From positions 62,001-126,000 of the forward strand of contig NZ_JAHUTN010000003.1 of the NCBI RefSeq assembly GCF_019209935.1: a stretch of 64,000 nt of DNA, given 5' to 3'. Source of the stretch: Corynebacterium sp. TAE3-ERU16 (GTDB lineage: Bacteria; Actinomycetota; Actinomycetes; Mycobacteriales; Mycobacteriaceae). Below the pieces are notes generated by a model. It did no database searches and was not told the DNA's origin. It saw only the letters and a program-made list of their open reading frames with translations. Position 1 is the stretch's first letter. Every line of letters begins with the position of its first letter. The position numbers and the translations under genes are program-made. Below are positions 54,866 to 61,227 of the stretch, one piece after another.

Positions 54866-56800
54866 TCAGGAATCGGCGACCTGCGGATCCTCATCCCGGG
54901 AGGTGTCGCTTTCCCCGGATTCCCCGGGGTGCGCTGCACCTTCGCCGTCACCGCAGTCGGCGGCACCGTCATCGGCGGCAGCGGCGTTGCCGGTGGTGGC
55001 GAACGCGTCGGGGCCCTCCTCCCCACCGCCGAGGTTCGCCTCGTCGACGTCGTGGATCGCGCCCTTGCCCATCGCCTCCTCGATCATCTTGAGCAACCGG
55101 GTACGGCGGTCGGCGAAGAAGTCGTCGGAGCAGGCGTTGCGGAGGACCCGCGGATCGAGGAGATGGCTCGCGAGGACGGCGTCGAACTCGTCGTCGTCCA
55201 TGAGCGACTTCGACTGCACACGGGCGAGGTACCTGGCCGGTTCCGCCCCGTCCATGACCATCTCCGTCCGGCGGCTCAGGGGCGAACGGTTGAGCACACT
55301 GTCGGCCAGCATCTGGTTGACCCCCGTCCGACGGCAGTACCGCGGCGGGAAGATCGGGTGGAAGCCCTCCTCGTCCTCCACGAGGTTCTGCGCGTCGAAC
55401 CGGTCACCGGTGCGCCAGTCCCTGGCGCCGCGGCCCATGAGCAGGGCGTGGGTGCCCTTCCAGACGCCGGACTCCGGGCCGACGCTGAGCAGCCGGGACT
55501 CGACGAAACGGGCGTCGCTGATGGATGCCGGCTCGGGCACCTCGGATTCTCCGTCGAGTGCGGCCCGCACCCAGGGGGTCACCTGGTTGACGTCCCTGCC
55601 GGTGCGGACGACGACGGAGGCGGAACCGTAGAGTTCGCCGAAGACGCCGGACCAGAACCACCGGTTGAGCCGGTCGACGGCCGCGCTGCAGCGGAACACC
55701 TCGGGGGTCTCACCGAGCAGGGAGAGGATCACCGCGAGTGGGGTGATCTGTGCCGCGTAGGGGATCCGGGTGGTGTCGGATATGCACCGTGCCTCCAGGA
55801 ACTCGGCCGCCGAGATGAAGGCGTCGACGGTGCGTTGCGCGGCGGGAGCGTAGTCCGCGAGGGTGAGCCGGAGGATGTCCTCGCGGTGTCCACTCGCATG
55901 CCCCTTCCCCGCGGTGGTCAGGAGGGTGACCGCGGTGAAGAACGCGGTGCGGTCGACGCCGTCGAGGACGGGGTGCTCCCGCAGCGCCTCCTCGATCTCC
56001 CGCCACGAGTCGGAGAGCCGGAAGTCGGGGTCCTCGCTGGCGAAGACGGCGGTGAGCAGGTCGACCACGTCCATCTGGAGTCCCGCCGAGTTGGCCTGGG
56101 AGAAGATCGAGCCGACGCCGCCCTGGGCGGTCTCCCGGTCGAGCCGGATGATCGGGACGGAGTACCGCACGAGCGGCTTCGCCACGGTGTTGTTGAACCG
56201 CTTGACCCGCTCACGGGTGACGGCATCTGCCCCCTCGACGAAGTCGAAGAGCATGTCGGTGCCCTCGTCCTCGAGCAGCGCGGAGACCGGAACCAGGCCG
56301 TGGGCGCGGGCGGTCTCCCGGTCCGGGATGCCGCCCGGGATCTTCGGGCCGTAGTGGGACTTGATCTCACCGTCCGCGTCGATGGAGAGCACCGCCTCGT
56401 CGGGCATGATGTCCTCGGACACGGCCTTGTCCACGTCGACGTAGAACCGGCGTCGGATGCGCTTGTTGCGGAAGTCGACGGTGTCGACGAGTCCGTCGCC
56501 GCGCAGACAGTGGTAGAGGGTGGTGAGACGCTGCTGTCCGTCGAGGATCAGCATGCCCGGGTTCCGCCCGGTGTCCGGCGCCCCGGCGAGTGGGCGGGGG
56601 CGGAACCTCATCGGTTCGTTCCGGGTGTCCAACGCCATGAGGCAACCGATCGGGTAGCCGCGCAGCACCGTCACGATCAGGGACCGGATGCGGTCGACGT
56701 TCCAGCTGTAGTCCCGCTGGAAGTCGGGTAGTTGGATATCGCCGCGGTCGATGCGGGCGAACAGATCGGTGAGGTCGTAGCTCGGTGTGGTGAAACCCAT
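54866..56800 (-). CDS. DUF262/DUF1524 protein, single-chain GmrSD-like
   Basis: A 644-residue protein. The N-terminal DUF262 (ParB/Srx-like) domain has LPDFQRDYSWNVDRIRSLI near 24-42 and LILDGQQRLTTLYHCL near 84-99, where DGQQR is the nucleotide-binding signature. The region about 445-590 resembles the HNH-type DUF1524: FHPIFPPRYCRRTGVNQMLA, then SVLNRSPLSRRTEM, with H-x3-P and the second Asn kept, and a late ASHLLDPRVLRNACSDDFFA. The acidic Ala/Gly-rich tail from 595 is probably disordered. GmrSD proteins are type IV restriction enzymes cleaving glucosylated hydroxymethylcytosine DNA; substrate here is inferred only. It stands alone on the minus strand with no methylase nearby, with housekeeping-like GC. 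Confidence 0.75.
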   Translation of the reverse strand: MGFTTPSYDLTDLFARIDRGDIQLPDFQRDYSWNVDRIRSLIVTVLRGYPIGCLMALDTRNEPMRFRPRPLAGAPDTGRNPGMLILDGQQRLTTLYHCLRGDGLVDTVDFRNKRIRRRFYVDVDKAVSEDIMPDEAVLSIDADGEIKSHYGPKIPGGIPDRETARAHGLVPVSALLEDEGTDMLFDFVEGADAVTRERVKRFNNTVAKPLVRYSVPIIRLDRETAQGGVGSIFSQANSAGLQMDVVDLLTAVFASEDPDFRLSDSWREIEEALREHPVLDGVDRTAFFTAVTLLTTAGKGHASGHREDILRLTLADYAPAAQRTVDAFISAAEFLEARCISDTTRIPYAAQITPLAVILSLLGETPEVFRCSAAVDRLNRWFWSGVFGELYGSASVVVRTGRDVNQVTPWVRAALDGESEVPEPASISDARFVESRLLSVGPESGVWKGTHALLMGRGARDWRTGDRFDAQNLVEDEEGFHPIFPPRYCRRTGVNQMLADSVLNRSPLSRRTEMVMDGAEPARYLARVQSKSLMDDDEFDAVLASHLLDPRVLRNACSDDFFADRRTRLLKMIEEAMGKGAIHDVDEANLGGGEEGPDAFATTGNAAAADDGAADCGDGEGAAHPGESGESDTSRDEDPQVADS

Positions 56801-56909: not shown

Positions 56910-57980
56910 TCAGTCGTGGACGTCCGCCTCGTGATCGGCGTGGTGCGCGGTTTCGATCTGGATCGTGGCGTGGGTGACGCCGACCTTCTCCAGGCTGCGG
57001 TTCGCGATGTCGAGGACGTCGCAGCCGGACTCGACCCGGTCCGGATCGATGACGAGATGGCAGGTTGCGATGAGCTCGCTGCCGTCCATCGTCCACACGT
57101 GGAGATCGTGGACGGTCTCGACACCGGGAATCTCCCCCAGTCTCCCGCGGATCTCGTCGAGGTCGACGTTCCCGGGGACCCGTTCCATCAGCACCCGGGT
57201 GGCGTCGAGGAGCAGGCGCATCGACCGGGGGAGGATGATCGCGGCGATCACGACGGAGGCGATGGTGTCGGCGAGGATGAAGCCGGTCGCCCGGACGATG
57301 AGGCCCGCGATGATGACGGCGACCGAGCCGAGCATGTCCGAGAGAACGTGGAGGTAGGCACCGCGCATGTTCATGCTGTCGTGCTGGCGGCGGACGAGCA
57401 GGAGCGCGGAGCCACCGTTGGCGACGAAACCGATGACCGCGACGATGAGCATCATCGTCGTGTCGATGTGCCCGTGTCCGCCGAGTCGCTTGATCGCCTC
57501 GACCACGATCCAGATCGAGATCGCCCCGACGGAGAGCGCGTTGACGGCCGCAGCGATGACCTCGATGCGGCGGAACCCGAAGGTGGCGGAGGACGTGGCC
57601 GCCCGCCTGCCGATGAGGATCGCCACCAGGGCGATGACCAGGCCCGCCGAGTCGGAGAGCATGTGGGCGGCGTCGGCGAGCAGCGCCAGGGAGCCGGACA
57701 ACAGGCCGAAGATGACCTCCGCGAGGAAGATCGTGGTGGTCAGGACGATGACACCGATCAGCGCTTTGAGGGATTTCGGCGCGTGGGCGTGTGCGTGTCC
57801 GCCGTGACCGTGATCATGTCCGTGGCCGTGGTCGTGGCCGGAGTGGTCGTGCCCGGCGTGGTCCTCCCCCTGACCGTGGTCGTGCCCGTGGTCGTGCATC
57901 CCGGGATCGTGTCCGGCGCAATCGTGGCCGTGTTCATGACCGTGTTCGTGATGGTCCCCGGTTCTCGTGCTCTCGCTCAT
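56910..57980 (-). CDS. Cation diffusion facilitator (zinc/cobalt-type exporter)
   Basis: A 356-residue CDF transporter exporting Zn2+ or related metals in exchange for protons. An exceptionally His/Asp/Gly-rich cytoplasmic N-terminus (about 1-67, over 20 His) probably buffers metal. Six hydrophobic segments follow, with SLALLADAAHMLSDSAGLVI near 95-114 (H-x3-D site) and GAYLHVLSDMLGSVAVIIAG near 208-227 (second H-x3-D). The C-terminal metal-binding domain has VHDLHVWTMDGSELIATCHL near 295-314. A direct 11-bp repeat sits upstream of its ATG at 57978-57980. No linked ArsR/CzrA-type regulator is visible. Confidence 0.92.
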   Translation of the reverse strand: MSESTRTGDHHEHGHEHGHDCAGHDPGMHDHGHDHGQGEDHAGHDHSGHDHGHGHDHGHGGHAHAHAPKSLKALIGVIVLTTTIFLAEVIFGLLSGSLALLADAAHMLSDSAGLVIALVAILIGRRAATSSATFGFRRIEVIAAAVNALSVGAISIWIVVEAIKRLGGHGHIDTTMMLIVAVIGFVANGGSALLLVRRQHDSMNMRGAYLHVLSDMLGSVAVIIAGLIVRATGFILADTIASVVIAAIILPRSMRLLLDATRVLMERVPGNVDLDEIRGRLGEIPGVETVHDLHVWTMDGSELIATCHLVIDPDRVESGCDVLDIANRSLEKVGVTHATIQIETAHHADHEADVHD

Positions 57981-58027: not shown

Positions 58028-58320
58028 ACGTGTTGGCGTTAAGCAGCGGAAACAGCTGCCAAATCCGGGACAATTTCGAATGTGGTGGCACGTAAAAGGC
58101 CTTTCCACATGGGCAAAGAACTAAGTGTCGACTTACCTGAAACGAATTCCGGTTACTTTTGTATCACCTCGGGAACACCCCCGAACTACACCCCCGATAC
58201 ACAGCCACTCCCGGGTCCGCGGCGGGGATGGCTCCACGGACCGGACCACGGCCCGGTGATACCGCCACTGGCGTACCCCGGCACCCCATCTCACCGGGCA
58301 ACGTGATCCGCGGCGACAGG
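58028..58320. other. Gene-free stretch
   Basis: About 290 bp between the CDF promoter and the terminator of the prpD/comA-like operon. Only short open frames without family resemblance are present. Confidence 0.4.
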
Positions 58321-58364
58321 AACCCCGCCGCACCGTCGTGTGTACATGACGGTGCGGCGGGGTT
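58321..58364 (-). terminator. Rho-independent terminator of the prpD/comA-like operon
   Basis: A perfect 17-bp stem (58321-58337 and 58348-58364) with a 10-base loop starts 23 bp after the stop of the minus-strand gene. The minus-strand stem ends in TT followed by CC. One of the strongest hairpins in the window. Confidence 0.85.
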
Positions 58365-58387
58365 CAGTGACCGTTCGAACGGATGGA

Positions 58388-59221
58388 TCAGTGGGGGTTG
58401 ATCACGCGACCCCAGGTGGACTTGTTGCCCCAGATGTTCTGACGCAGACCCTCGAGCTGCAGGACCTGCGAGTGGTCGACGAACAGGTTGCACTCGTTGC
58501 CGTAGTTCTTGACGTACCACTCGAACACGGGACCGTCGGCGGCCTCGAACATGACGTTCTCGAGGCCGAGCCCGTTGATGATGGAGGCGGCGGCGCCGGT
58601 GTTCCACTCCCGGACGTTCTCGGTGATGCCCTCGGACTCGATCATGATGATCGACGCCCCGGCGTCGAGTGCACGCTTGCCGCGGTCGATGAGGTCCCCG
58701 ATGTCCTTGGCCCCCTCAGCGGCGAGCTCGGCCTCGGAGGAGTCGCCACCGGAGCCGATCTGGATACCCAGCTCGGGCTTGGCCTTCAGGCCGGCCTTGA
58801 CGACCTTCTCGACGAGGCGCTCGAGACCCGAGGTCGGGAGCATGATGAAGCCGGTCGAGATCTCGATGACGTCGAAGCCGACCTCCTTGGCCTCCCTGAG
58901 GTAGTGGTCGACGGCGTCGTCGCCGTAGCGCAGGACCGTCTCGATCCAGCCGCCGGAGGAGACGTAGGCGTCATTCTCGTGGGCGATGTCGGAGAACTTC
59001 CGGACCTGCTCGGTGGGGCACAGTGCGAAGGAGCCACCGGCCCACTTGATGCCGTCCACCCACTGGCCGGCCATGTCGAACACGTCCTGGAGGTGACGGG
59101 TGCCGAAGGTGTCGTAGTAGGGCGCGCGGACCTCGGTCATGCCGTAGGAGCGGGGCTTGGCGGGTCGTTTGGCGCGGGGGACGAAGTTGAAGGAGACGTC
59201 GAAGTCAATCGCGTTGGACAT
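58388..59221 (-). CDS. Phosphosulfolactate synthase (ComA) family protein
   Basis: A 277-residue TIM-barrel protein of the ComA family; archaeal ComA adds sulfite to phosphoenolpyruvate to give (2R)-phospho-3-sulfolactate in coenzyme M synthesis. Matching segments are RPAKPRSYGMTEVRAPYY near 19-36, WVDGIKWAGGSFALCP near 54-69, DAYVSSGGWIETVLRYGDDA near 84-103, EVGFDVIEISTGFIMLP near 112-128, GASIIMIESEGITENVREWN near 187-206 and NVMFEAADGPVFEWYVKNYG near 221-240. Coenzyme M is not expected here, so the real reaction is unknown; related plant and bacterial members are linked to heat tolerance or sulfonate metabolism. It follows the MmgE/PrpD gene by 29 bp and must share its transcript. Confidence 0.82.
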   Translation of the reverse strand: MSNAIDFDVSFNFVPRAKRPAKPRSYGMTEVRAPYYDTFGTRHLQDVFDMAGQWVDGIKWAGGSFALCPTEQVRKFSDIAHENDAYVSSGGWIETVLRYGDDAVDHYLREAKEVGFDVIEISTGFIMLPTSGLERLVEKVVKAGLKAKPELGIQIGSGGDSSEAELAAEGAKDIGDLIDRGKRALDAGASIIMIESEGITENVREWNTGAAASIINGLGLENVMFEAADGPVFEWYVKNYGNECNLFVDHSQVLQLEGLRQNIWGNKSTWGRVINPH

Positions 59222-59250
59222 GGTGGTGCCTTTCTGTCGGTGGTGCGGTG

Positions 59251-60636
59251 TCAGGAGCGGGTCGTGGAGACCCGGGCCAGCAGGTCGGTCAGCTCGGAGA
59301 TCTCGGCGACCTCATCGAGCCGGTGGACGGTGTCGCAGATCTCGGTGCGCAGGGCCTCGTCGGTGAAGGGCTCGGCCAGTGCGGTGAACTTCGCCACCGC
59401 GCCGTCCCAGTCGAGCGGCTGGGAGTGGAAGCCGTCGTAGGCGGATTCCACGGCGTGGTACTCGGTACCGTCGTTCATGACGATGACGAGGTCGGCGGGC
59501 ATCTCGTTCGGGAACCGGTCGGAGAACTCGTCCGACGGGGTGATGGTGACCTTTCCCATCAGCGTCTGCACATCGTCGGCGACGATGCGCTCCGGCTCAT
59601 ACTGTGCGGGATTGAGCTCCCCGTCGAGGATCGTCACCGCGAGCATCCAGGGAAGGGAGTGATCGGCCTCCTCCTTGGTGCGGATGGAGCGCTTGTCACC
59701 CTCTTCACCGCCGCCGATGATGGAGTAGGCGACGTCGAAGGTGGTCAGACGCACCTCCCTGATCTCGGAGGGATCGAAGTCGTGCTTCCTCTTGAGCTCG
59801 AGGGCCGCCTCGAGGGCGGACTGGGAGTGGATCTCGGCGTTGTACTTCTTGATGATGGTGCGGGTGACGGACTCGAGGTCCTCCTTCGACCAGTCGAGCT
59901 CGTAGTCGCCGGCCAGCGCCTTGAAGCCCTTGTTCCCCTCGAACACCGCCTCGGGTCCGGTGATTCCCTTGCCAGCGAGGAGGGCGTAGAACATGCCCTC
60001 CTTGGAGGTGTGCGGGTAGGCCAGCCCCTTCCAGTGGGAGAGGTTACCGGTGCGGGTGACGCGCAGCGCGACATTGGCGGTGGCGGTCATCGCGGCCGCG
60101 TTGGCGATGCCGTCGGCATCGAGGCCGAGGGCGAGTGCGGCGGATGCACCCGCCGCGAAGGCACCCTGGGTGGTGTGGTCGAAGCCGAGGGCACGCACCG
60201 GCGCGACGTCGGAGAGCCGGGTGTGGATCTGGTAGGCGACGGCGAAGGCGGTGAGGAAGTCCCGGCCTGATGCGCCGGCGACCTCGGCCGCGGCGAGGAC
60301 GGCACCCATGTTGTCGGAGGGATGGTTGGTCTCCCCCTTGGCGAGGTACGCGTCCATGAAGTCGAGGTATCGGGACGCCGCGGAGTTGTGGAATGCCGCG
60401 AGGTCGGCGGCCGTCTTTCCGCCACCGATGAGGGTGGCCTGTCCGTTGCCGCCGAGATCGTCGTTGAGCGAACGGATGGCGACGAGAACGTCGGAGTCCA
60501 GCGCGCCGACAGCGACGCCGAGGGTGTCGAGGACGCGGATCTTCAGCTGTTCCAGCGCCTCCGGTGACATCTGCTCGAGTCTGGCGCTGGCGGCGAAGTC
60601 CGCCATCTGCTGCACTTCGGTGCGGTTCGTGGTCAC
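59251..60636 (-). CDS. MmgE/PrpD family protein
   Basis: A 461-residue all-alpha plus lid-domain protein of the MmgE/PrpD family, which includes 2-methylcitrate dehydratase, cis-aconitate decarboxylase and iminodisuccinate epimerase. Key segments are LKIRVLDTLGVAVGA near 32-46, FHNSAASRYLDFMDAYLAKG near 84-103 (active-site Asp and Lys), THPSD-like NHPSDNMGAVLAAAEVAG near 105-122, the GFDHTTQGAFAAGASAALAL segment near 152-171, and AEIHSQSALEAALELKRKHD near 268-287. GTG 60634-60636 is chosen as AGAAAGG lies 10 bp upstream; ATG three codons earlier is too close to that site. No prpB or prpC is adjacent; the partner is a ComA-like gene. A palindromic operator covers its promoter. Confidence 0.83.
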   Translation of the reverse strand: MTTNRTEVQQMADFAASARLEQMSPEALEQLKIRVLDTLGVAVGALDSDVLVAIRSLNDDLGGNGQATLIGGGKTAADLAAFHNSAASRYLDFMDAYLAKGETNHPSDNMGAVLAAAEVAGASGRDFLTAFAVAYQIHTRLSDVAPVRALGFDHTTQGAFAAGASAALALGLDADGIANAAAMTATANVALRVTRTGNLSHWKGLAYPHTSKEGMFYALLAGKGITGPEAVFEGNKGFKALAGDYELDWSKEDLESVTRTIIKKYNAEIHSQSALEAALELKRKHDFDPSEIREVRLTTFDVAYSIIGGGEEGDKRSIRTKEEADHSLPWMLAVTILDGELNPAQYEPERIVADDVQTLMGKVTITPSDEFSDRFPNEMPADLVIVMNDGTEYHAVESAYDGFHSQPLDWDGAVAKFTALAEPFTDEALRTEICDTVHRLDEVAEISELTDLLARVSTTRS

Positions 60637-60720
60637 GGGGTACATACCTTTCTGGTGGGGCAGCCTCGGGCGGGCCGGTCATCGGTTCCGCACCCCACAC
60701 TGTTTCGGAAGGCTACCCTT

Positions 60721-60748
60721 ACAGTACGAGCGTTCTGTTAGCTGTCAA
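60721..60748 (-). promoter_or_regulatory. Promoter with embedded palindromic operator of the prpD/comA-like operon
   Basis: On the minus strand TTGACA (60743-60748) and TACTGT (60721-60726) are separated by 16 bp, a good -35/-10 pair. ACAGTACGAGCGTTCTGT (60721-60738) is a near-perfect palindrome with 8-bp arms and one mismatch, covering the -10 box and much of the spacer. This is the layout of a TetR- or GntR-type repressor site. The regulator gene is not adjacent. The start codon at 60636 leaves a leader of about 75 nt. Confidence 0.6.
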
Positions 60749-61143: not shown

Positions 61144-61227
61144 CGCTCCGGCCGGGTTCGGGGAACGCGGCCGGAGCGGAAGAGAAGACCCGCCCGCCAA
61201 CCGTCGTGGACGGCTGGCGGGCGGGTC
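61144..61227 (-). terminator. Two stacked hairpins downstream of ilvC
   Basis: The first hairpin on the minus strand pairs 61215-61227 with 61187-61199 over 13 bp (GACCCGCCCGCCA arm), with an inner CCGTC/GACGG extension. The second pairs 61144-61153 with 61169-61178 over 10 bp. The first starts 36 bp after the ilvC stop. Neither has a long U-tract. Confidence 0.7.

What the first reader, a model, noticed from the sequence alone, without database searches (positions are those of the whole stretch)
58388..60748. Two-gene operon pairing an MmgE/PrpD protein with a phosphosulfolactate-synthase-family protein
The two genes are 29 bp apart, share one promoter and end at one strong terminator, so they form a closed unit. 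PrpD family enzymes dehydrate, decarboxylate or epimerise tricarboxylates; ComA-family enzymes join sulfite to phosphoenolpyruvate. I know no described pathway that uses just these two. A corynebacterium is not expected to make coenzyme M. The unit could build or break a sulfonated or branched acid, or the ComA-like protein may have a different C-C/C-S ligase activity.
Basis: partly seen in the sequence, partly recalled or inferred. Interest (0 to 1): 0.7.

Follow-up and report, generated by a model that had tools for sequence, protein, structure and literature searches.

The report
Iron-starvation stand-in pair for aconitase
Two neighbouring genes that scattered bacteria carry together appear to be switched on when iron or aconitase runs short, and may do the job of that iron-dependent enzyme of central metabolism without iron, which an enzyme assay could settle.

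Summary
In detail: a PrpD-family gene (59251-60645, -) and a ComA-family gene (58388-59221, -) form a closed unit. PrpD sits directly before this ComA subfamily in 70 of 80 loci and in 7 of 8 long matches elsewhere in the phylum, but beside 0 of 20 ordinary ComA genes fetched. No constant third gene was found. The ComA-like protein has the ComA fold but replaces residues fixed in ordinary ComA, so it is probably not a phosphosulfolactate synthase. The control regions give the clue. A DtxR-type iron box stands before 39 of 50 actinobacterial operons (weak in the window). The window's promoter holds an exact operator of AcnR, the aconitase repressor; the only other exact match in this genome is before aconitase. 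Fourteen other genomes carry a TamR-like palindrome before both aconitase and this operon. Best reading: an Fe-S-free bypass, PrpD dehydrating citrate to cis-aconitate and the ComA-like protein hydrating it to isocitrate. The chemistry is inferred. The C. glutamicum counterpart, cg2796-cg2797, is in print as a DtxR-repressed operon of unknown proteins.

The parts
59251..60645 (-). PrpD-like protein, 464 aa, first gene; proposed Fe-independent citrate dehydratase
   Evidence: Pfam MmgE_PrpD N and C; model matches cis-aconitate decarboxylase, MmgE and IDS epimerase at Z 41.3-42.5; H108, H157, K206, K266 in 66 of 66 aligned partners; T106 in 67 of 67 where E. coli-type PrpD has W110
58388..59221 (-). 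ComA-like protein, 277 aa, second gene; proposed aconitate hydratase (conjugate addition of water)
   Evidence: Pfam ComA 240.5 bits; model matches 1QWG at Z 27.3, rmsd 2.4, 241 aligned; equivalog TIGR03849 69 of 280 bits; residue swaps
60722..60737 (-). AcnR operator CAGAACGCTCGTACTG, between the -35-like hexamer and the -10 region
   Evidence: exact match to CAGNACNNNCGTACTG, the only one in the window, 0 in 100 shuffles; consensus from PMC2723105 passage; the only other exact match in this genome lies before acn
60703..60721 (-). DtxR-type iron box TAAGGGTAGCCTTCCGAAA (weak)
   Evidence: matrix of 30 C. glutamicum DtxR sites, score 11.9, p 0.016, the smallest value that 60 random sequences allow
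60743..60748 (-). TTGACA, -35-like hexamer
   Evidence: read by eye; not listed by the promoter scan
58320..58365 (-). 18-pair hairpin after the ComA-like gene, probable terminator without a clean T run
   Evidence: fold of 58305-58387 at -53.2 kcal/mol, z -6.9; not listed by the terminator scan

Best explanation
The operon is an iron-sparing bypass of aconitase. When iron is low (DtxR off), or when citrate builds up because aconitase is short (AcnR in this clade, a TamR-like regulator in other Actinobacteria), the two genes are expressed. The PrpD-like protein, which needs no Fe-S cluster, removes water from citrate to give cis-aconitate. The ComA-like barrel, which descends from an enzyme that adds sulfite to the double bond of phosphoenolpyruvate, adds water to the double bond of cis-aconitate to give isocitrate, which isocitrate dehydrogenase then uses. 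Shown here: the pairing, both folds (predicted models), the changed ComA residues, predicted iron boxes, and predicted operators shared with acn (and with icd, prpD and a tam-like gene in some genomes). Inferred: regulator binding, both substrates, both reactions, and that water is the nucleophile.
For: (1) Operators shared with aconitase in two unrelated designs. AcnR: exact site at the operon and at acn in this genome, in G165, G068 and G047; the gene after acn matches AcnR structures (E 1e-83, PDB 4AC6). TamR-like palindrome: in 33 of 53 actinobacterial operons with at most 2 mismatches, 0 of 2650 random sequences; before acn in 16 of the 22 genomes that have it, G003 with one mismatch; at both places in 14 of these 16 (G214 and G228 with one mismatch at the operon, G235 with a solitary comA); also before icd (L156, L157), methylcitrate prpD (L083), a gene closest to trans-aconitate methyltransferase (L091) and a MarR gene (L161). 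(2) Iron: DtxR box in 39 of 50 actinobacterial operons; C. glutamicum cg2796 rises 1610-fold in a dtxR mutant (PMC1382209 section 7), while RipA represses acn under low iron (PMC13001254 passages). (3) Wild-type E. coli PrpD dehydrates citrate to cis-aconitate as a side activity, 12-fold less efficiently than AcnB; W110 lines the pocket of the extra methyl group, and W110 mutants shifted from 2-methylcitrate to citrate (PMC9468356 passages). The pair's PrpD has T106 there in 67 of 67, two methylcitrate PrpDs have Y. (4) ComA's K137, R170, Q212, N227 and R244 are replaced while K43, E79, E103, E133, E168, E205, N224 and R240 are kept, as expected for the same kind of addition on another acceptor. 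(5) In Brevibacterium daeguense a solitary comA, acn, and a prpD 85% identical to the methylcitrate prpD of L083 all carry the palindrome.
Against: No enzymology. Aconitase is present in 50 of 50 genomes tested that have the ComA-like gene (45 of them with PrpD beside it), so none depends on the pair for isocitrate. Ten of 80 loci have the ComA-like gene without adjacent PrpD; in the 8 of those genomes searched no close PrpD is found, only 23-30% relatives in 5 and none in 3, so the ComA-like protein can act without its partner. One Corynebacterium keeps PrpD with a ComA remnant (G036). A DtxR box was found in 0 of 17 proteobacterial operons, and no clear Fur or Irr box (best Fur p 0.02, L055). 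The window's iron box is weak, and the close relative L043 (C. pygosceleis) has none by the same test (p 0.62). The AcnR site is exact in only 4 of 12 corynebacterial operons, one mismatch in a fifth (G160). The PrpD model cannot tell dehydratase from decarboxylase or epimerase. Loss of the lysine at 137, recalled as ComA's general acid, leaves the proton donor unknown.
Confidence: 0.48

Rival explanations
1. Sulfonation: PrpD makes cis-aconitate and the ComA-like protein adds sulfite to it, giving a sulfotricarboxylate that is exported as a chelator or disposes of sulfite when iron-dependent sulfite reductase fails.
For: ComA ancestry is sulfite chemistry (family description). In 9 Brevibacterium loci a gene of one cluster lies divergently just upstream of PrpD; the one scanned is a Sulf_transp transporter (L006), and a TsuB/YeeD-like gene follows where checked (L088).
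Against: The sulfur genes were seen there only in Brevibacterium. No exporter or siderophore gene was seen among the 20 neighbours given to Pfam. Classical R170, Q212, N227 and R244, possible anion ligands, are replaced. icd and acn share the palindrome, which suits isocitrate better.
Confidence: 0.15
2. Aconitate clearance: the pair removes cis- or trans-aconitate that leaks from damaged aconitase, rather than running a bypass flux.
For: The palindrome also precedes a gene closest to trans-aconitate methyltransferase (L091). TamR is relieved by citrate and trans-aconitate (PMC5487221 passages). In deep-branching actinobacterial loci CMD-family and DsbA-like genes, possible redox-stress genes, stand just before PrpD (L211, L212; DsbA-like alone in L215).
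Against: A citrate-consuming dehydratase is not needed for clearance. Iron boxes are found in corynebacterial operons that lack both aconitase operators.
Confidence: 0.12
3. Fe-free methylcitrate branch: the pair converts 2-methylcitrate to 2-methylisocitrate by the same two steps.
For: PrpD family; methylcitrate prpD carries the same palindrome in Brevibacterium; the methylcitrate cycle itself uses a dehydratase followed by a hydratase (recalled).
Against: PrpD equivalog score 139 of 950; the aromatic residue of the methyl pocket is T106 in 67 of 67; no prp gene was seen among the 20 neighbours given to Pfam, though L215 has a citrate-synthase-family gene some 5 kb away, class not settled; acn and icd, not only prp genes, share the palindrome.
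Confidence: 0.1
4. Itaconate route: the PrpD-like protein is a cis-aconitate decarboxylase and the ComA-like protein adds a nucleophile to itaconate.
For: Cis-aconitate decarboxylase is among the best structure matches (Z 42.5).
Against: That Z is tied with methylcitrate dehydratase (42.0), and IDS epimerase follows at 41.3; the tyrosine position (307 here, equivalence recalled) is Y in only 39 of 66.
Confidence: 0.05
5. A true phosphosulfolactate synthase for coenzyme M or sulfolactate, as suggested for cg2797 in PMC2627906.
For: Pfam ComA far above cut-off; published suggestion (passage).
Against: TIGR03849 69 of 280 bits; K137, R170, Q212, N227 (20 of 20 classical) and R244 (19 of 20) replaced; the partner is PrpD, and the predicted control is by iron and aconitase regulators.
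Confidence: 0.02

Closest known systems
C. glutamicum cg2796-cg2797
   Same: MmgE/PrpD gene in an operon with a ComA-family gene, DtxR-repressed (PMC1382209, PMC2627906). Corynebacterium G096 has the pair with an iron box one base from the published cg2796 box.
   Different: Published as unknown proteins; deletion and overexpression were tested for indole tolerance, with no effect (PMC7764795 passages). The passages that I read mention no aconitase link. I did not retrieve that locus by name, and PF02679 did not ring in the tool's C. glutamicum control genome.
Phosphosulfolactate synthase ComA (1QWG, 1U83)
   Same: Fold (Z 27.3 and 25.9); eight conserved charged or polar residues named in the report.
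   Different: 19-23% identity; residues fixed in classical ComA replaced, an insertion around 155-170; partner gene PrpD.
2-methylcitrate dehydratase PrpD/MmgE
   Same: Fold and conserved His/Lys positions.
   Different: About 24% identity to solved ones; far below the equivalog cut-offs; T106 in place of the aromatic methyl-pocket residue.
Aconitase AcnA with AcnR or TamR control
   Same: Same predicted operators; proposed same net reaction.
   Different: No aconitase family domain hit for either protein; no Fe-S cluster expected; two proteins instead of one.

Membership tests
Phosphosulfolactate synthase (ComA) | Pfam PF02679 over gathering score and ComA fold | tested here: met
   240.5 bits, cut-off 25.2; 1QWG Z 27.3
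Phosphosulfolactate synthase (ComA) | Equivalog TIGR03849 | tested here: not met
   69.3 bits, cut-off 280; the model is named for archaeal ComA
Phosphosulfolactate synthase (ComA) | Residues fixed in classical ComA: K137 (recalled as general acid), R170, Q212, N227, R244 | tested here: not met
   Q154, E197, F233, F247, W264 in at least 20 of 21 subfamily members against 20 classical ones; Q154 and E197 in 78 of 78
Phosphosulfolactate synthase (ComA) | Makes phosphosulfolactate from PEP and sulfite | not testable with these tools
   needs an assay
MmgE/PrpD superfamily | Both Pfam domains and fold | tested here: met
   213 and 149 bits, cut-off 32.1; Z 36.5-42.5 to the 11 solved entries at the top
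2-methylcitrate dehydratase (equivalog) | NF042438, NF006943 or TIGR02330 over cut-off | tested here: not met
   139 of 950, 120 of 575, 96.5 of 458 bits
cis-aconitate decarboxylase | Fold and active-site residues (positions recalled) | tested here: inconclusive
   Z 42.5, tied with a dehydratase; four of five positions kept in 66 of 66, the tyrosine in 39 of 66
Aconitase | Aconitase family domain | tested here: not met
   no aconitase family domain among the hits of either protein
Aconitase | Interconverts citrate and isocitrate | not testable with these tools
   proposed for the pair together
AcnR regulon | CAGNACNNNCGTACTG in the promoter, acnR present | tested here: met
   exact site; AcnR-like gene after acn; binding itself not tested
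DtxR regulon | 19-bp iron box in the promoter | tested here: inconclusive
   weak in the window (11.9, p 0.016), absent in relative L043, strong in many other operons; binding not tested here

The most novel reading that the evidence does not exclude
A mobile, two-protein, iron-free aconitase: one lyase of the PrpD family dehydrates citrate and a ComA-family barrel, turned from sulfite addition to water addition, hydrates cis-aconitate to isocitrate, keeping the TCA cycle and glutamate synthesis open when Fe-S aconitase is off.
Probability: 0.42. Interest if true: 0.88.

Novelty: new variant of a known kind. Interest (0 to 1): 0.74.

Why it matters
Aconitase is a classic weak point of metabolism: it needs a fragile Fe-S cluster, and I know of no Fe-S-free enzyme that replaces it (recalled; one literature search for it, listed 20 of 21 papers, none naming one in its title or the start of its abstract). 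cg2796 has the fourth highest RT-PCR ratio in the 2006 DtxR table, yet I found no function for it in the papers searched. Operator sharing with aconitase gives a direct, cheap test: does the pair make isocitrate? If yes, it explains how such bacteria keep citrate moving at low iron, and gives metabolic engineers an aconitase without an Fe-S cluster. If no, the operators still confine the likely substrate to the citrate/aconitate node.

Tried and rejected
Third gene: neighbours of 80 loci plus the window were clustered (my ORF caller missed ComA in 5 of them: L015, L026, L037, L074, L079); after ComA and PrpD the next largest clusters reach 10-11 loci, and Pfam of 20 neighbours showed no shared theme. 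TonB-receptor idea for the methanotroph loci: the gene before PrpD in L067 is an HrpB-type helicase, so the siderophore idea lost support. Partners of solitary ComA genes: PGA_cap, lactamase-fold, LytR and acetyltransferase genes in three loci, nothing common. Loss of acn: 0 of 50 genomes, against the strongest form of the bypass idea. Fur and Irr boxes in Proteobacteria: nothing clear. Palindrome letters in papers: 11 hits, none on such a regulator by title. DtxR/HrrA ChAP-seq paper PMC12327846: cg2796 does not occur in the main text held. Six of 22 palindrome genomes have no site before acn (G219, G221, G222, G226, G227, G240) and two with the acn site lack it at the operon (G212, G213).

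Statistical cautions: the palindrome consensus was read from these same promoters before it was counted; p-values and the null come from first-order Markov sequences. Starts of L012, L036 and L038, and 5 of 9 starts, were estimated. One search prints AcnR scores as /10 although 12 positions are compared. The list stops within G096; its promoter was checked (best match 7 of 12). In one search, 14 of 81 entries gave no usable full PrpD (10 unpaired, L012, L036, L038, L071) and 3 gave no ComA; these were dropped from the alignments. Ordinary ComA loci have about 1.5 kb of flank.
Full report
What is there. On the - strand, a PrpD-family gene (59251-60645) is followed after 29 bp by a ComA-family gene (58388-59221). 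ilvC upstream is followed by a terminator-like hairpin (61187-61227). After the ComA-like gene lies an 18-pair hairpin (58320-58365); the stretch 58305-58387 folds at -53.2 kcal/mol against a shuffled mean of -29.4. It lacks a clean T run and the terminator scan did not list it. Neither protein reaches its nearest equivalog model: 69 of 280 bits for phosphosulfolactate synthase, 139 of 950 for methylcitrate dehydratase.

The pair is conserved as a pair. A scan of one genome per species gave 119 relatives, of which the best 80 loci were kept: Corynebacterium, Brevibacterium, Leucobacter, Brachybacterium, Rothia, Nesterenkonia and other Actinobacteria, gammaproteobacterial bins, Methylosinus, Methylocystis, Bradyrhizobium, Mesorhizobium. 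PrpD lies directly before the ComA-like gene in 70 of 80, including one broken (L036) and one cut by the contig end (L071); 10 lack it: L052, L053, L059, L060, L062-L065, L074, L077. In 201 Corynebacterium genomes 15 have a match; the 12 full-length ones all have PrpD beside them, one more has both genes broken (G184), one has PrpD with a ComA remnant (G036), one is a fragment at a contig end (G122). In 396 genomes of the phylum 38 match: the window's own, eight long matches at 55-59% identity, one fragmented match (G316), and the rest at 23-35%. Seven of the eight long ones have full PrpD beside them, the eighth (G268) a piece near its contig end; 0 of 20 ordinary ComA loci fetched have it. 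So this looks like a separate ComA subfamily tied to PrpD, rare but scattered. No third gene recurred. PrpD and ComA distances correlate over 66 paired loci (Spearman 0.82; related sequences, so not independent points). The ComA-like protein is 88-91% identical between the window and six genomes (two Brevibacterium, Brachybacterium, Leucobacter, Janibacter, Microbacterium) in which the N-terminal half of AcnA is 65-71% identical, which suggests transfer, strong constraint, or both.

Proteins. AlphaFold models (27- and 18-sequence alignments) have mean pLDDT 79 and 87. The ComA-like model fits 1QWG at Z 27.3, rmsd 2.4 over 241 residues, far above the next fold group (16.3). The PrpD-like model fits cis-aconitate decarboxylase, MmgE and iminodisuccinate epimerase about equally (Z 41.3-42.5), so the fold does not choose the reaction. 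Against 20 classical ComA sequences, 21 subfamily members keep K43, E79, E103, E133, E168, E205, N224 and R240 (M. jannaschii numbers) but replace, among others, K137 by Q154, R170 by E197, Q212 by F233, N227 by F247 and R244 by W264, and carry an insertion around 155-170. That K137 is the general acid of ComA is recalled, from no call. Q154, E197, K146, K148, E150 and H250 are the same in 78 of 78. PrpD-like proteins keep H108, H157, K206 and K266 in 66 of 66 and have Y307 in 39 of 66; the matching of these to decarboxylase residues is recalled. In E. coli PrpD, W110, G111 and I331 line the pocket of the extra methyl group of 2-methylcitrate, and W110 mutants moved towards citrate (PMC9468356 passages). 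By the alignment, W110 corresponds to T106 here, which is T in 67 of 67 pair PrpDs but Y in two methylcitrate PrpDs; I331 stays I. This favours citrate over 2-methylcitrate.

Control by iron. A matrix of 30 published C. glutamicum DtxR sites (PMC1382209, section 7 read; cg2796 left out) finds a site with p at most 0.05 in 39 of 50 actinobacterial operons and 0 of 17 proteobacterial ones. The window's box is weak (11.9, against up to 27.4), and L043, a close relative, has none. In nine corynebacterial promoters fetched separately, partly the same species, 6 have p at most 0.05. In C. glutamicum, cg2796 rises 1610-fold by RT-PCR in a dtxR mutant; cg2797 is called a ComA in one operon with cg2796, and coenzyme M synthesis is suggested (PMC2627906 passages). 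The same pair rises with indole, and its deletion or overexpression did not change indole tolerance (PMC7764795 passages). I did not fetch the named locus; the link rests on those descriptions, on 57% identity of cg2797 to a Rubrobacter ComA (passage), which is subfamily range, and on G096, whose iron box differs from cg2796's by one base. Against this, PF02679 did not ring in the tool's C. glutamicum control genome.

Control with aconitase, first design. AcnR binds CAGNACnnncGTACTG before acn (PMC2723105 passage). The window has exactly one exact match, 60722-60737, inside the promoter, 0 in 100 shuffles. The whole genome has two exact matches, this one and one before acn (L128), whose N-terminal half matches AcnA. 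acn is followed by a TetR-type gene matching AcnR structures at E 1e-83. G165, G068 and G047 have exact sites at both places (G047 also a third site); G160 has the operon site with one mismatch; G045, G117 and G100 have an exact site at acn but none at the operon. So AcnR control of the operon belongs to part of the genus.

Control with aconitase, second design. Many other Actinobacteria have a different palindrome, TMTCTYGAYRTCRAGAKA, before PrpD: 27 of 53 actinobacterial operons fit it exactly, 33 with up to two mismatches, 0 of 2650 random sequences. It is rare: 2-3 places per genome with one mismatch allowed (narrower pattern TATCTTGAYRTCRAGATA) in six genomes, none for the reversed pattern. 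Of 36 genomes searched, 22 have it; it lies 96-323 bp before acn in 15 of 21 compared by coordinates, plus G006 (the G003 site has one mismatch). Fourteen of these 16 have it at the operon too. Other targets: icd (754 and 760 bits, cut-off 335), methylcitrate prpD (873 of 950 bits on a truncated protein), a gene closest to trans-aconitate 2-methyltransferase (308 of 320 bits), and a MarR-family gene. This is what a TamR regulator would look like: TamR of S. coelicolor is a MarR protein that represses aconitase and other citric-acid-cycle genes and is relieved by citrate and trans-aconitate (PMC5487221 passages). That this palindrome is a TamR site is my inference; its letters were not found in a relevant paper.

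Mechanism. Two unrelated predicted regulators of aconitase also mark this pair; both are said to sense citrate (TamR; AcnR: recalled). Iron shortage releases the pair while RipA shuts acn (PMC13001254 passages). The simplest job is aconitase's own. Wild-type E. coli PrpD dehydrates citrate as a side activity, about 12-fold less efficiently than AcnB (PMC9468356 passages). The missing half is hydration of cis-aconitate. ComA adds a nucleophile to the double bond of an unsaturated acid (PEP); adding water to cis-aconitate is the same type of reaction. I give the bypass 0.48. The solitary ComA-like genes (10 of 80) fit if other enzymes supply the aconitate: in B. daeguense the solitary comA, acn and a prpD 85% identical to the methylcitrate one of L083 all carry the palindrome. 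They fit less well in Mesorhizobium, where no such link was seen.

Against. No genome in a set of 50 with the ComA-like gene (45 with the pair) has lost aconitase. Proteobacterial copies show no recognisable iron control. Sulfite chemistry is not excluded; in 9 Brevibacterium loci a gene of the sulfur-transporter cluster faces the operon. None of the reactions was measured.

Novelty. The operon and its iron control are in print for C. glutamicum; the pairing across phyla, the distinct ComA subfamily and the shared aconitase operators I did not find in the searches made (open-licence PubMed Central papers only, no preprints). As a kind, iron-sparing replacement of an Fe-S enzyme is known (recalled); a replacement for aconitase made of these two families would be new.

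Noticed in passing
L006, L008, L009, L010, L014, L016, L020, L023, L057 (Brevibacterium), upstream of PrpD: A gene of one cluster (Sulf_transp in L006; a TsuB/YeeD-like gene follows where checked, L088) is divergent from PrpD across the region that holds the palindrome and the iron box.
   Followed up: partly
L083 880-1491 (-), L146 866-1405 (-): A DUF4916 gene is divergent from methylcitrate-type prpD across the same palindrome in two Brevibacterium genomes, so it may belong to the same regulon.
   Followed up: partly
L211, L212 and L215, genes beside PrpD: In deep-branching actinobacterial genomes CMD-family and DsbA-like genes (DsbA-like alone in L215) stand on the same strand just before PrpD, hinting at redox stress; L215 also has a citrate-synthase-family gene at 1569-2696.
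   Followed up: partly
L036 7079-7950; L110; L112: Broken copies: PrpD in two frames in Gulosibacter chungangensis, both genes broken in Corynebacterium G184, a ComA remnant after an intact PrpD in G036.
   Followed up: no
L127 and L130: A second exact AcnR-type site lies before a major-facilitator transporter gene in two Corynebacterium genomes, G117 (Pfam MFS_1) and G100 (by eye).
   Followed up: partly
window 54866-56800 (-): A GmrSD_N-domain protein (644 aa; Pfam PF03235, 84.7 bits), of the kind found in modification-dependent restriction enzymes, stands beside a cation-efflux gene (56910-57980).
   Followed up: partly
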